From: Sulfurospirillaceae bacterium
GTDB lineage: Bacteria > Campylobacterota > Campylobacteria > Campylobacterales > Sulfurospirillaceae
Direction of reading: 5' to 3'
DNA: 32,455 bases
Assembly (NCBI GenBank): GCA_028693565.1
Contig: JAQUVE010000016.1
Location: forward strand, 1-32,455
Below, piece by piece: positions 3,365 through 14,711 of this stretch (position 1 is its first letter; the number at the start of each line of letters is the position of its first letter). The position numbers and the translations under genes are program-made. The notes below the pieces were generated by a model that was not told the origin of the DNA, made no database searches, and worked only from the letters and a program-made list of their open reading frames with translations.

Positions 3365-3796
3365 ATGACTGGTATTCGTCTCGCAACTATTAATGACACC
3401 AAAAGTATTCAAACGTTATTAGCTCAACTTGATTATCTTAATACGCAATCATTTATCGTTCAAAAATTTCACACTCTTTTAAACCACCCAGATGCCATCA
3501 CCTTGATTTATGAGATAAATGACACGGTTGTGGCTTTTCTTTCTTTGCATTTTATTCCACAAATTGCGCTTGAAGGTGATTTCATGCGTATTAGTTATTT
3601 TGTTGTCGAGGAAAGTGCTCGGGGTAAGCTCATCGGGCAAGAACTGGAAGCCTATTGCGAAGGTGAAGCAAAAAAACGACACTGTAATCGAATCGAAGTG
3701 CATTGCCATACAAGACGAAAAGATGCCCATCGTTTTTACGAAAGGCAAGGCTATAGTGAATCACCCAAATATTTTATCAAATTGCTTAATAAGTAG
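3365..3796 (+). CDS. GNAT-family N-acetyltransferase
   Basis: The 143-residue protein has the GNAT fold. The acetyl-CoA-binding motif A is at about residues 79-95 (a beta strand ending VVEE, then ARGKLIGQEL), and the late motif HRFYERQGY is at about residues 122-130, as in many small-molecule or protein acetyltransferases. The substrate cannot be deduced. AGGAGA (3354-3359) is a good ribosome-binding site. Its 3' end overlaps the convergent small membrane-protein gene by 11 bases. No promoter stands out between the upstream terminator and this start, so expression may depend on read-through or a promoter hidden in the hairpin region. Confidence 0.85.
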   Translation: MTGIRLATINDTKSIQTLLAQLDYLNTQSFIVQKFHTLLNHPDAITLIYEINDTVVAFLSLHFIPQIALEGDFMRISYFVVEESARGKLIGQELEAYCEGEAKKRHCNRIEVHCHTRRKDAHRFYERQGYSESPKYFIKLLNK

Positions 3797-4070
3797 CTAA
3801 TTTCTGTATTAATGCTTTAACTTCATTTTCATCAAAAAATAGATTGAACTCTAACTCTTTAGCAAAATCTTTTAAGAGTGCAATTTTTTTTGCTTGTCTC
3901 TCTTGGTCATTTTCAACATCTGCAAGTTCAGTAAGAAGTCTTTTTTGATAACTTTGGCGTATCTCTTCTTGTTTTTGTTCTTTAGACTTAGGTTTTTTTT
4001 TAGGTTTAAGCAACAAAAATGAAAAGCCAAGTAGGATGAGTATTGCTATAGTATTATAAAATGTTTCCAC
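3786..4070 (-). CDS. Small membrane-anchored charged protein, unknown function
   Basis: The 94-residue protein has one N-terminal transmembrane helix (residues about 6-21), then a very basic segment rich in Lys (KPKKKPKSKEQK) and a long charged helix, probably a coiled coil facing the cytoplasm. I do not recognise the family. The start is GTG at 4068-4070, with AAAGG about 7 bases upstream on the minus strand. It is convergent with the GNAT gene and overlaps its last 11 bases. A membrane anchor plus a charged coiled coil would suit a scaffold or small accessory protein, but nothing in the sequence fixes a role. Confidence 0.7.
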   Translation of the reverse strand: METFYNTIAILILLGFSFLLLKPKKKPKSKEQKQEEIRQSYQKRLLTELADVENDQERQAKKIALLKDFAKELEFNLFFDENEVKALIQKLATY

Positions 4071-4157
4071 AAAAAACCTTTACACATAAGAGAATTTAAG
4101 TATTTCATATGTAAATGATTCTACACTAGTTTGACTTAGAGTAGGGGTATTAAAAGA

Positions 4158-4190
4158 TAAGAGCGCATTCTTTATTAAAATGCGCTCTTA
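4158..4190 (-). terminator. Intrinsic terminator after the Cys-repeat gene
   Basis: A perfect 12-bp stem (4158-4169 with 4179-4190, core AAGAGCGCAT) has a 9-base loop. Read on the minus strand it is followed by TTTT. It lies 10 bases beyond the stop of the gene at 4200-5567 and would close the lipoprotein/Cys-repeat unit. Confidence 0.85.
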
Positions 4191-4199
4191 ATATGTGGG

Positions 4200-5567
4200 C
4201 TATTGTTTCACAGCTTGACAACGCTGAGAATTTAAAATGGTTTTAATATCAGAATACATTTTTTCAAGTTGTTGTGTGTCAGGGGAAAATGTTGGACCAT
4301 GCATATCAATGATACCAATTAATTTACTAAGTTCTCCTTCGAAGGCTCCAATATCAGCAATGCCCGCATCAAGTAGTTGAAGATTGAGGTTGATGTCAAG
4401 ATTTGGCAAGCTTGTATTGACAGCTAGATTAAGTTTGTTGATGATTGGTTTGACTAAAGTATTTGCTTGGTTTTCTAAATCATGAATGAGTGAGCCCAAT
4501 CCAATTTTTTTAAGAGCCGAATAGATTGTTGAACTGAGTATGGATTCAATTTTCTTTTCTATAGCATCTGTTCCTTTGAGTCCATCTGCAACTGACATTC
4601 CAATATCAACGCTACATGTTTGTACCCCACATGGGTAAGGTACTTTTTCGGTACATGTTTTTACCCCACATGGATAGTGGCATGTGGTAATACCGCAATT
4701 TTTCTTACACATTTTTGTTCCACAAGGGTAAGATTGATCATGGTAGCATATCTTAGCGCCACATGGATATTCCGCTTTTACACTAATACGTTTATCAAGG
4801 ATATGCTCTAATTCTTTGAGGGTACTGTATAGCGGGTCCAATTTTCCTAACAACCGCATCAATGGATCTTCGAGTTGGCGAATTTTTTCAATTTCGCTCA
4901 TAATGGCTTGCATCGACTTTTGTGGTACTTGTTTGACGGAATCGTAGGTATTGTTAATGCGTGTCATTTTACTATCTATATCGAGGTAAACACTGCGAGA
5001 GTTATTTAAAATACTGATAATCATATCATCATGATCACATTGTGAAACCTTGCCCACAGCATCAATATAGCTGATACCACTACGCCTAAAAGCATCTTCA
5101 GCGTCAACGAGCGTTGATGCTACTTTTTCCGCTTTTTGTGTTGCATTTAACAGAGGTACGATTTTAGCATCAATGTTACCCATCGTTTGTGCGGCTTTTG
5201 TAACCGGTTGATGAATCGACTCAAGATTGGATTTTAGTTTTTGTGCATCAACTCTCGTTTGTGGTACTTGTTCTGCCGCAGTTAACCCTTTTTCGACAAC
5301 TGTTAGCGCATTATCAAGCGTTTTTAATGCTTGTGACGTTCGATGTACAATCATTAAGGCTTGTCCAAAATCTATCAAAGCTTTATCCACCTGATGGGTA
5401 TTATCCATGAGGAGTTTTGACTCTTGAGAAAATACACTTCCTTCATTAAAGAAAGCTTTAGAAGCACTCATAAATGCTTCATCATTATCGGCATACACGA
5501 ATGTATTGCATAGTAATAGTGTGCACAATCCCATAAACAATTGTAGAAAATATGGCTTAGTTGACAT
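4200..5567 (-). CDS. Exported protein with five CG-x3-C motifs, unknown function
   Basis: The 455-residue protein has a signal peptide (residues 1-26, cleavage after VYA). Residues 30-260 are mostly helical and likely form coiled coil. A compact Cys-rich block spans 267-318 with five motifs of the form (YP or KN)-C-G-x3-C, starting at Cys269, 282, 291, 300 and 313. The spacing is symmetric (13, 9, 9, 13). A helical C-terminal region follows to 455. Only two other mature-chain cysteines exist (177, 450). No CxxCH heme motif is present. Ten clustered periplasmic cysteines suggest a disulfide-knotted or metal-binding module; this is inference. The start has a strong AGGAGGAT Shine-Dalgarno sequence. 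A lipoprotein gene lies 76 bases upstream on the same strand. I do not recognise the family. Confidence 0.8.
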   Translation of the reverse strand: MSTKPYFLQLFMGLCTLLLCNTFVYADNDEAFMSASKAFFNEGSVFSQESKLLMDNTHQVDKALIDFGQALMIVHRTSQALKTLDNALTVVEKGLTAAEQVPQTRVDAQKLKSNLESIHQPVTKAAQTMGNIDAKIVPLLNATQKAEKVASTLVDAEDAFRRSGISYIDAVGKVSQCDHDDMIISILNNSRSVYLDIDSKMTRINNTYDSVKQVPQKSMQAIMSEIEKIRQLEDPLMRLLGKLDPLYSTLKELEHILDKRISVKAEYPCGAKICYHDQSYPCGTKMCKKNCGITTCHYPCGVKTCTEKVPYPCGVQTCSVDIGMSVADGLKGTDAIEKKIESILSSTIYSALKKIGLGSLIHDLENQANTLVKPIINKLNLAVNTSLPNLDINLNLQLLDAGIADIGAFEGELSKLIGIIDMHGPTFSPDTQQLEKMYSDIKTILNSQRCQAVKQ

Positions 5568-5643
5568 TCTATCCTCCTATTATACTGAGACAATCATTGC
5601 ATCAATGAAACCTAAAACCTCTGTTAATTAACGATGTTATCTT

Positions 5644-6240
5644 CTATTTGGTGTTAAAATTATCAAAGCTGTTGTATTTATCTTTACTATAGGAGTTATC
5701 CGAATCACTTGTATCGTAGACAGAGTTCTGCTGATTTATTTGTGGACTTGGCGAAACACCTTGAGAGGCAGCACCATCGGATTTTGTCAATGGCGCGATG
5801 GCGATAAGCTTATCTAAGAAGAGTTTATAAAGAGTGATCGTTTCTTCTTTGCTAAGATTGTGATTTAAGGAGAGTTCACATACACGGTACATAAATTCTC
5901 GCGTAATTAAAACCAATGGGTCTCTTCCACCAAGGGATAGTGCAGCATTGCTTGAAGTGGTACCAATACTCTCTTTTGATATTCCTGTACCAAACCCAAA
6001 AGAGATACCCTCCTGAGGCGCACTAATAGCATCACTTTCCCGTGCTGCACAAAATCGAGTTAGATCATTAGGTGTCTTGATAAGATTGGTTTCTGTATCT
6101 TCAGCAACAGTGTGTGTTGTTAATCCAGCTACTGTATAAGTTTGTGCAGGCGACACGGTAGTATTACTACATGCGCTCAAGAAAAAAAGAGGTAGAAATC
6201 CATACGTGAAAGTGATAAAAAGCAGTTCAAAGTAGCGCAT
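5644..6240 (-). CDS. Lipoprotein, unknown function
   Basis: The 198-residue protein starts with a lipoprotein signal peptide with lipobox LSAC, lipidated at Cys24. The mature part has RFCAARESDAIS, a Gly/Ser-rich stretch, then REFMYRVCELSLNH, and a low-complexity Asn/Ser/Asp tail. The pattern R-F-C-A ... R-x-x-M-Y-R-x-C-E resembles that of some lipoproteins in other proteobacteria, but I cannot name the family. The two mature cysteines in those motifs may form a disulfide. The ribosome-binding site is AGAAGGA before the ATG. The Cys-repeat gene follows 76 bases downstream on the same strand and ends at a shared terminator, so the two are probably one unit at the cell envelope. Confidence 0.75.
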   Translation of the reverse strand: MRYFELLFITFTYGFLPLFFLSACSNTTVSPAQTYTVAGLTTHTVAEDTETNLIKTPNDLTRFCAARESDAISAPQEGISFGFGTGISKESIGTTSSNAALSLGGRDPLVLITREFMYRVCELSLNHNLSKEETITLYKLFLDKLIAIAPLTKSDGAASQGVSPSPQINQQNSVYDTSDSDNSYSKDKYNSFDNFNTK

Positions 6241-6412
6241 ATTAGATCCTTCTTAATGAAAATCAGATTAAAAAAGAAAAGCCAAAAACACTACAATAAA
6301 TTAAAAAAATCTTTATAAAAAAGTTATTTATAATTTTTAATAATTGTAATACAATGTGAATGGAAAGTCAATCATTTTAGATACATCTATCTATTTTTAA
6401 ACCACTTTTGTG

Positions 6413-6418
6413 TAAAAT
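6413..6418 (+). promoter_or_regulatory. Candidate -10 element for purT
   Basis: TAAAAT with an immediately preceding TG lies 29 bases before the purT ATG. The 206-base divergent gap (6241-6446) is otherwise very AT-rich, and I see no operator or RNA in it. Confidence 0.45.
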
Positions 6419-6446
6419 TTTCTAAATCAAATCAGAAGAGGTTAAG

Positions 6447-7607
6447 ATGCAATTTACAACTCCTTTAAAAAGCAACAGTACCAAAATTATGTTAGTAGGA
6501 AGTGGTGAACTTGGTAAAGAGGTGGTTATCGAGGCAACACGTTTAGGCATTGAAACCGTTGCTGTTGATTCATATCCAAACGCACCAGCACATTTAGTGG
6601 CCAATAAAAGTTACGTTATCAATATGAAAAACAAAGAAGAGCTTTTAGAAGTCATTCGTCGTGAAAAACCAACCTATATCTTGCCTGAGGTCGAAGCGTT
6701 AAGCATAGAGGCATTAATTGAAGCAGAAAAAGAAGGTTTTTGTGTTATTCCTAATGCAGATGCCGTTAAAAAAACAATGAATCGTAAAAATATTCGTGAA
6801 TTTGCCGCTGAAAAATTAGGACTTAAAACCAGTGATTATGTTTTTGTAAAAACGTTTGAAGCACTAAAAGAAGCGACACAAAAGTTAGGCATTCCATGCG
6901 TTGTGAAACCTGTGATGAGCTCATCTGGTCATGGACAAAGTGTCATCCGAAATGAATCTGACATCCAAAAATCTTGGGAAATTGCTAAAGAAGCACGCGG
7001 TGATGCAAGTGAACTTATTGTTGAGGCATTTGTGCCATTTGACTATGAGATCACGCTTTTAACCGTTCGCAATGGTAAAGAGACCATTTTTTGCGAGCCT
7101 ATCGGGCATATCCAAGAAAACGGTGATTATGTGCTGAGTTGGCAACCAGTTCCTATGAAGCCTGAAGTGTTGGCTAAAGCGCAAGTCATGGCAAAAGCTG
7201 TTACTGATGGACTCGGTGGCCGTGGTTTATTTGGTGTGGAATTTTTTGTCAAAGATGATGAGGTTTACTTTAGTGAACTTAGTCCTCGCCCTCATGATAC
7301 AGGCATGGTCACGCTTATCACACAAAGCCAGAGCGAATTTGCGTTACATGTCAGAGCAGTACTTGGCTTACCGCTTGATTTTACATTTTATGGCTCTGGT
7401 GCGAGTGGCGCGTTTAAAAGCCTTGAAGAAGCACATATGCCAACACTGAGTATCCCTGAAAGCGCTTTCTCAAAAAACTCTTTTGTTCGTGTTTTTGGAA
7501 AACCTGTCAGCCATATGGGTCGCCGTATGGCTGTAGCTTTGGTGCTTGATGAAGTGGAAGCGGCTAAGAAAAAAGCCAAAGAAATTGTCTCAGCAATTAT
7601 CGGATAA
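6447..7607 (+). CDS. purT: Formate-dependent phosphoribosylglycinamide formyltransferase 2
   Basis: The 386-residue ATP-grasp enzyme makes formyl-GAR from GAR, ATP and formate in purine synthesis, a folate-independent alternative to PurN. The length matches E. coli PurT (about 392). Visible features are the N-terminal nucleotide loop GSGELGKE (residues 18-25), the ATP-grasp segment with [14 protein letters not shown], and the C-terminal metal/ATP block [11 protein letters not shown] followed by [14 protein letters not shown]. These separate it from the related PurK. The ribosome-binding site AAGAGG is at 6436-6441. Direct use of formate suits an anaerobe or microaerophile that uses formate. 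A DUF523 gene begins immediately after its stop codon (TAAATG). Confidence 0.95.
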
Positions 7608-13907: not shown

Positions 13908-14711
13908 TTATTTTCCAAAAATATCTTGAATCACTTTGCTACCACTGCTGAGTGGATTTGAGCGAAGTGCTTTCTCTTTTTCTCCTATCATATAAAAAAG
14001 TCCATCCAATGTTTTGCGCCCAATGTAGGTTTCAATATCTTCATCCTCGTTAGGAAGTGCATCGCCCATTCCGAAAGATTTTGCGGCACTTGAAGCTTGA
14101 CTCAGTAGATTGCTATTGGGAAGTGAGTTTTTATTACTTTGATAAAGTCCTGTGAGTGTTTGGTAAGAAGAGAGCACCTTACTCTCTTTGGCACTCTCTT
14201 TAATAATAGGCATAATGGCCGTTAAGAGTTGGGTGGCGCTTTTGTTTTTAAAATAATCTGTCGCGGCGGTATTGCCACCCGCTACAATGGCTTTGGCATC
14301 TTCTAAACTCATATTGGTAACGGTTTTTCCTAAAATCTCCGCTGTTTTGGGCACTGCTTTAGAGGCTGCTGTGTTCATTGTCTTAACAAGATCATCAACA
14401 TATTTTTTTCCACCCGCTTTTTCAGCGAGTGTTGCAATGGATTGCATGGAAGAGGGAAGAGGAATTTTGACGGCACTATTATTGAGAAAACCACCCTCTT
14501 TACCAAGGAGCGAAATAGCTTGATTGACACCTAATCCGAGTGCTTCTTTTAAACCTTTTGAGGTGTACTCTTGACTAAGCCCTGATGAAGAGGAGCTTGT
14601 TGAGGTTGTTTTTGGCGTTGCAGCTGTTGTCTCCACAACGGATTGGAGTGTATTTTGCCAACTGGCGCATAAGAGAAGCGGTAACCCTAGCAGCATTGTT
14701 TTTTTCAGCAT
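13908..14711 (-). CDS. DUF4197 exported protein
   Basis: The 267-residue protein has a signal peptide (about 1-17), a Ser/Thr-rich linker, and then the DUF4197 domain: SKGLKEALGLGVNQAISLLGK, NSAVKIPLP, the MNTAASKAVPKTAEILG segment, and DYFKNKSATQLL. The domain is all-helical and widely found as a periplasmic or lipoprotein in proteobacteria; the function is unknown to me. LLLCAS is a poor lipobox, so ordinary signal peptidase cleavage is more likely. It is convergent with mscS and divergent from the HAD phosphatase gene. Confidence 0.85.
   Translation of the reverse strand: MLKKTMLLGLPLLLCASWQNTLQSVVETTAATPKTTSTSSSSSGLSQEYTSKGLKEALGLGVNQAISLLGKEGGFLNNSAVKIPLPSSMQSIATLAEKAGGKKYVDDLVKTMNTAASKAVPKTAEILGKTVTNMSLEDAKAIVAGGNTAATDYFKNKSATQLLTAIMPIIKESAKESKVLSSYQTLTGLYQSNKNSLPNSNLLSQASSAAKSFGMGDALPNEDEDIETYIGRKTLDGLFYMIGEKEKALRSNPLSSGSKVIQDIFGK

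What the first reader, a model, noticed from the sequence alone, without database searches (positions are those of the whole stretch)
4200..6240. Envelope pair: a lipoprotein and an exported protein with five symmetric CG-x3-C motifs
The secreted 455-residue protein carries five CG-x3-C motifs at residues 269, 282, 291, 300 and 313. The spacings 13-9-9-13 form a mirror pattern inside a 52-residue block flanked by long helical regions. The upstream 198-residue lipoprotein ends in the same unit, closed by one terminator (4158-4190). Seen: motifs, lipobox, layout. Inferred: a disulfide- or metal-bound module displayed in the periplasm, with the lipoprotein as partner. I know of no named system of this form.
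Basis: partly seen in the sequence, partly recalled or inferred. Interest (0 to 1): 0.55.

Follow-up and report, generated by a model that had tools for sequence, protein, structure and literature searches.

The report
Cysteine-stapled stalk protein with lipoprotein partner
A rare two-gene cassette in Sulfurospirillum bacteria encodes an outer-membrane-type lipoprotein and an exported helical protein carrying a ribbon of mirror-spaced cysteines; it matches no named family and is probably an accessory cell-envelope structure of unknown use.

Summary
Window 4200-5567 (-) encodes an exported 455-aa protein with five CG-x3-C motifs at 269/282/291/300/313. The 198-aa lipoprotein gene 5644-6240 (-) lies 76 bp upstream, and one terminator closes the unit. 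No named family matches. In the genus 2 of 24 genomes, and in the family 3 of 44, carry both genes, always adjacent. A fourth copy, in a more distant genome, is broken by a stop and has no detectable lipoprotein. The exact 13-9-9-13 spacing is not conserved: relatives have four YPCG-x3-C motifs (the broken copy has two). The mirror symmetry is kept in all four. AlphaFold predicts three ~70-residue helices, a 2 x 32-residue beta-hairpin holding the cysteines, then more helices. I read this as a disulfide-stapled beta-ribbon on a helical stalk. The model is modest, and its register is two residues off the cysteine mirror. The pair sits in an insertion hot spot (m94-purT) and at other sites in its relatives, so it is an accessory cassette. 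The only outstanding fold match is a Tupanvirus ORFan. The function (surface stalk or contact tip) is inferred.

The parts
5644..6240 (-). Lipoprotein gene, 198 aa. Lipobox L-S-A-C24|S (codons about 6169-6180). Conserved core GGRDPLVLITREFxYRVCExSLNHNL with C64 and C121 invariant in 3 of 3.
4200..5567 (-). Exported 455-aa protein. Signal peptide about residues 1-26, twelve cysteines after it (C177, ten in the block, C450).
4797..5483 (-). Residues 29-257: three long predicted helices (29-98, 105-174, 181-257).
   Evidence: AlphaFold2 model, pLDDT mean 78, pTM 0.55
4593..4790 (-). Residues 260-325: predicted long antiparallel beta-hairpin (260-291 / 294-325) that carries the cysteine block.
4614..4763 (-). 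Cysteine block, residues 269-318. Mirror pairs 269/318, 274/313, 282/305, 287/300 and 291/296 all sum to 587.
4206..4592 (-). Residues 326-454: C-terminal helical region, with invariant C450.
4158..4190 (-). Terminator-like hairpin closing the two-gene unit.
6343..6371 (-). Promoter-like site TTGACT-17-TACAAT upstream of the lipoprotein gene. The scan as a whole is near chance (13 found, mean 10.2 in shuffles).
4091..6398 (.). Approximate extent of the insert between the m94 gene and the purT promoter region. Boundaries were read by eye from empty sites.

Best explanation
The pair is an accessory envelope module. Shown: a lipoprotein signal, an export signal, adjacency, mirror-spaced cysteines, and an insertion in an otherwise mostly empty slot. 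Predicted: the exported protein is an elongated helical stalk (helices of about 70 residues, roughly 10 nm by arithmetic) from which a 2 x 32-residue beta-ribbon projects. Inferred: in the oxidising envelope the mirror-placed cysteines pair across the ribbon as four or five disulfide rungs, making a rigid, protease-resistant tip. C177 and C450 may pair with each other or with the partner. The lipoprotein (Ser at +2, so probably sorted to the outer membrane) docks or anchors the stalk, which then acts as a contact or adhesion element at the cell surface or as a spacer in the periplasm. Repeats can be added or lost without breaking the pairing, because they change near the turn in register.
For: Mirror sums are constant in all four homologues: 587, 589, 573 and 546. 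The model shows a single long hairpin over exactly this block with pLDDT mostly above 80. The tight-turn sequences FGKK and LGAS lie at the mirror centre in UBA2217 and Kmv13 (read). Flanking pairs next to the outer rung alternate hydrophobic residues (I261:V326, V263:M324, A265:I322, Y267:V320). DsbB is present in the three pair-bearing genomes, and was not found in the one where the gene is broken and the lipoprotein missing. The genes co-occur and are adjacent in 3 of 3 intact cases. 17 of 20 other genus purT loci are empty at this site, and UBA2217 has an empty site here while carrying its pair elsewhere.
Against: Only one of five models was good (means 78, 69, 48, 44, 43), on an alignment of four sequences. 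The strand ends put the hairpin centre at 292.5, while the cysteine mirror centre is 293.5, so the model's register is two residues off in pair-sum terms and does not place the cysteines exactly opposite. A hydropathy correlation across the whole block, with cysteines masked, does not single out the mirror register (0.12, 0.10, 0.01). PDB searches give only generic helical bundles. Nothing tests function, location or physical partnership.
Confidence: 0.4

Rival explanations
1. Serial small loops: each CG-x3-C motif closes on itself (C-x4-C disulfide), giving a string of four or five beads rather than a stapled ribbon. The mirror pattern is then only a by-product of tandem 13-residue repeats.
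For: Each motif is itself symmetric, so any regular tandem array is mirror-symmetric. The fifth motif is a whole CX4C unit. The whole-block hydropathy test does not favour the mirror register. In a regular ribbon, rungs five residues apart would alternate face and pair type, which is unusual for disulfides (general knowledge).
Against: The model gives two continuous 32-residue strands, not loops. All three intact copies keep an even-length centre compatible with a two-residue turn.
Confidence: 0.3
2. Metal or haem site: the cysteines bind a metal, or CX4CH motifs carry covalent haem.
For: Some motifs are followed by His (window motif 3; UBA2217 and Kmv13 motifs 1 and 4; broken copy motif 2). 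CX4CH haem sites exist in some tetrahaem cytochromes (recalled).
Against: The His is not conserved at any one motif: the window has Y and S where the others have H. There is no CXXC or CXXCH in the block, and no cytochrome family match.
Confidence: 0.1
3. Antagonism cassette: the exported helical protein is a secreted or surface effector and the lipoprotein protects the producer.
For: Patchy, mobile two-gene cassette, strong divergence (59% and 66% against 93% for purT), exported protein plus lipoprotein.
Against: No toxin, pore-former or defence family match. No effector domain or secretion-system gene recognised by eye among the window ORFs. No lipoprotein-only (immunity-only) genome was found in 44 family genomes.
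Confidence: 0.15

Closest known systems
Cystine-ladder beta-hairpins (theta-defensins, protegrins and similar peptides)
   Same: Antiparallel hairpin closed by several cross-strand disulfides; same principle as proposed here.
   Different: The examples in the passages I read of PMC13001179 are free peptides of about 16-21 residues with one to three bonds (hepcidins four). Here four or five rungs are proposed on a 66-residue ribbon inside a 455-aa exported helical protein.
Putative ORFan A0A6N1NW27, Tupanvirus deep ocean (predicted structure)
   Same: Best Foldseek match by far: E 5.9e-11, probability 1.00, 434 columns, TM 0.44/0.53, 15% identity; next best 6.5e-4.
   Different: Amoebal giant-virus protein of unknown function. 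I could not obtain its sequence, so shared cysteines and homology are untested; long helices plus a long hairpin may match by shape alone.
TraN mating-pair stabilisation protein
   Same: Recalled as a cysteine-rich outer-membrane protein with an extended contact tip; an analogy only (paper seen in search listings).
   Different: No conjugation genes recognised by eye in the window ORFs and no Pfam match.
RND efflux periplasmic adaptor (MexC, NF033138)
   Same: Weak match of one helical stretch (18.7 bits).
   Different: Cut-off is 625 bits; ordinary coiled-coil similarity.

Membership tests
Beta-hairpin antimicrobial peptides | Short cationic polypeptide that is a single disulfide-cyclised hairpin | tested here: not met
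   455 aa, mostly helical; definition from passages of PMC13001179
Beta-hairpin antimicrobial peptides | Cross-strand disulfide rungs | tested here: inconclusive
   Mirror sums constant, hairpin predicted, register off by two, no coordinates
c-type cytochromes with CX4CH | Histidine after every motif | tested here: not met
   1 of 5 motifs in the window; 2 of 4 in each intact relative; 1 of 2 in the broken copy
MexC-type RND periplasmic adaptor (NF033138) | Score over the curated cut-off | tested here: not met
   18.7 against 625 bits
Rz1-like LysC (PF23793), for the lipoprotein | Score over the gathering cut-off | tested here: not met
   13.9 against 27 bits, matched by 1 of 3 members
ClyA-type alpha pore-forming toxins | Helical bundle with a hydrophobic beta-tongue (recalled) | tested here: inconclusive
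   Not among the rows listed, which excludes nothing; the hairpin is rich in K, T and E
Anti-phage defence systems (PADLOC) | Match to any model at E 0.1 | tested here: not met
   0 families for both proteins
Bacterial lipoproteins (as a signal class) | Signal peptide with lipobox and +1 Cys | tested here: met
   LSAC, LTAC and FSGC in 3 of 3; lipidation itself not testable

The most novel reading that the evidence does not exclude
A new class of envelope nanostructure: a roughly 10-nm helical stalk topped by a roughly 10-nm beta-ribbon locked by four or five tandem disulfide rungs. It is built from interchangeable 13-residue YPCG-x3-C units so that the ribbon can lengthen or shorten in register, is docked by a dedicated outer-membrane lipoprotein, and has an architecture shared with a giant-virus ORFan.
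Probability: 0.2. Interest if true: 0.65.

Novelty: new variant of a known kind. Interest (0 to 1): 0.42.

Why it matters
If right, it is a natural modular cystine ladder far longer than the known hairpin peptides, in bacteria living in low-oxygen habitats where multi-disulfide envelope proteins are unexpected. It would give a testable small system for disulfide-zipped beta-ribbons and a new accessory surface module. It also shows that the m94-purT gap is an insertion slot for accessory genes, including envelope genes. If the ladder is wrong, what remains is a narrowly spread, unnamed gene pair of modest interest.

Tried and rejected
Family libraries: Pfam, NCBIfam, PHROGs and PADLOC gave only sub-threshold matches, mostly to coiled-coil stretches. 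PDB sequence searches gave weak matches at E 0.077 or worse for the Cys protein and nothing for the lipoprotein. Plasmids and phages: no match for either protein. Viral contigs by protein pattern: none confirmed.

Two phylum hits of the Cys protein (E 6e-4 and 8e-4 in G289 and G165, one with an internal stop) and one weak lipoprotein hit (G159, E 0.0013) were dropped as chance: partial, 21-27% identity or a short stretch, and no partner was found with them.

Repeat-pattern searches: the first pattern had an off-by-one error and failed its own control, so those empty answers mean nothing. The corrected pattern finds the known copies and nothing in viral contigs. A looser one matched only these three genomes of 298 in the order, and 25 viral stretches that on reading look like low-complexity or chance (L064 and L056 are P/G-rich repeats).

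Whole-block hydropathy pairing did not favour the mirror register. Concerted evolution of the motifs was not supported: 0.78 identity within genes, 0.79 at orthologous positions, 0.76 otherwise, with the window's fifth (central) motif left out. Lipoprotein fold: pLDDT 41, not searched. ClyA-like folds and other pore-formers do not appear in the rows; that excludes nothing. Paper searches for the pair or its relatives and for ladders or Tupanvirus ORFans showed no description of it; of these I read only passages of PMC7565565, PMC13209400 and PMC13001179, the rest as search listings. Two further searches, on TraN and on Campylobacterota DsbB, were read as listings only.

Full report
What is there. 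On the minus strand of the window a 198-aa lipoprotein gene (5644-6240) is followed after 76 bp by a 455-aa exported-protein gene (4200-5567) and a 14-pair terminator-like hairpin at 4190-4158. The exported protein has a signal peptide ending near ...FVYA|DN (by eye) and twelve cysteines after it: C177, ten in the block 269-318, and C450. None of 100,000 shuffles of the protein had more than two such motifs.

Relatives. The genus search held 24 genomes. The Cys protein matched in 2 and the lipoprotein in the same 2. The family search held 44 genomes: 3 for each, the same three. A phylum sample of 397 gave 5 rows for the Cys protein, of which I keep those three and drop two weak ones. It gave 4 rows for the lipoprotein profile, of which I keep the same three and drop one. 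In the three the genes are adjacent and in the same order. The genome-contig scan named two of them Sulfurospirillum sp. UBA2217 and Kmv13, and added MAG CG2_30_36_10; its patterns covered only the N-terminal part. In that MAG the gene is interrupted by a TAA just before the cysteine block, only two motifs remain, and no lipoprotein was found in its 2.0-Mb assembly, whose completeness is not known. Kmv13 comes from a terrestrial mud volcano (passages of PMC7565565). PMC13209400 places it among mostly marine Sulfurospirillum (passage).

An accessory slot. The purT gene was found in 21 of 24 genus genomes. In 17 of the 20 others the 94-aa membrane gene m94 lies next to purT with nothing between. 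In the window the pair sits in that gap, approximately 4091-6398. Two further genomes (L027, L023) have a predicted EamA-like transporter beside purT, and one (L029) a small HTH gene and a predicted outer-membrane barrel; the names are my reading of the ORFs. L030 shares even the acetyltransferase gene of the window but lacks the pair. UBA2217 has an empty site here and its pair on another contig. In Kmv13 the pair lies between glgB and pgi, and in CG2_30_36_10 the remnant lies between a cytochrome-like and a cation-transporter-like gene (names by eye). So the pair occurs at four different places in four genomes. Between the window genome and UBA2217, purT is 93% identical but the pair only 59% and 66%. 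This fits separate acquisition or fast divergence. G+C differs little from the surroundings.

The cysteine pattern. The exact 13-9-9-13 spacing is private to this genome; the fifth, central motif (NCGITTC) is an addition. The conserved unit is a pair of YPCG-x3-C motifs 13 apart, occurring twice, with a middle spacing of 18, 18 and 14; the broken copy keeps one unit. What is kept is the mirror symmetry: first with last, second with next-to-last and so on give constant sums of 587, 589, 573 and 546. Random placement gives this in 3 of 200,000 trials and random spacing of five CX4C motifs in 1,226 of 200,000. Equal tandem repeats alone also give it, so the symmetry is suggestive and not proof.

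Structure. AlphaFold2 on four sequences gives helices 29-98, 105-174 and 181-257, a long hairpin 260-291/294-325, then helices to the end; mean pLDDT 78.3, pTM 0.55. Against it: four of the five models were worse (69, 48, 44, 43), and the strand ends imply a pair sum of 585 and not 587. The hydropathy test over the whole block, cysteines masked, did not single out the mirror register (0.12, 0.10, 0.01), though the pairs flanking the outer rung alternate well. The lipoprotein could not be modelled. In the PDB, 0 of 631 Foldseek matches reached E 0.001 and VIA-align gave designed repeats and generic bundles. In the viral library one match stands far out: a Tupanvirus deep ocean ORFan, E 5.9e-11, next 6.5e-4. 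I could not read that protein, so it stays a lead.

Disulfide or metal. The motifs are CX4C, not zinc-type CX2C. The histidine that would make some of them CX4CH is not conserved at any motif. DsbB (PF02600) is found in the three genomes with intact pairs and in G022, which lacks the pair, but not in CG2_30_36_10, where the gene is broken; 4 of 5 in all. That is consistent with disulfides but is one negative in a MAG.

Verdict. The finding is real and unnamed in every library I could search. I favour a stalk with a disulfide-stapled ribbon and a lipoprotein partner (0.4), ahead of serial CX4C loops (0.3), an antagonism cassette (0.15) and a metal or haem site (0.1). The function beyond architecture is inference.

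Noticed in passing
window 4070-6447; L023, L027, L029: The m94-purT gap is an insertion slot in the genus: different accessory genes occupy it in four genomes (this pair, EamA-like transporters twice, an HTH gene plus a predicted outer-membrane barrel once).
   Followed up: partly
window 3365-3796 (+) and L030 665-1090: A GNAT-like acetyltransferase gene next to rpsI is shared only by the window and L030 among the purT loci examined (the loci reach only 1.5 kb beyond purT).
   Followed up: no
window 13908-14711 (-): Exported DUF4197 protein (PF13852, E 4.5e-62).
   Followed up: no
L036 (G018) 1501-2579: purT appears split into two frames, possibly an assembly or sequencing error.
   Followed up: no
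L011 4773-6029: Broken, repeat-contracted copy of the Cys protein in MAG CG2_30_36_10, 78% identical to the Kmv13 protein, in a genome with no DsbB match.
   Followed up: partly
BFVD A0A6N1NW27: A Tupanvirus ORFan's predicted structure is the only strong fold match of the Cys protein.
   Followed up: partly
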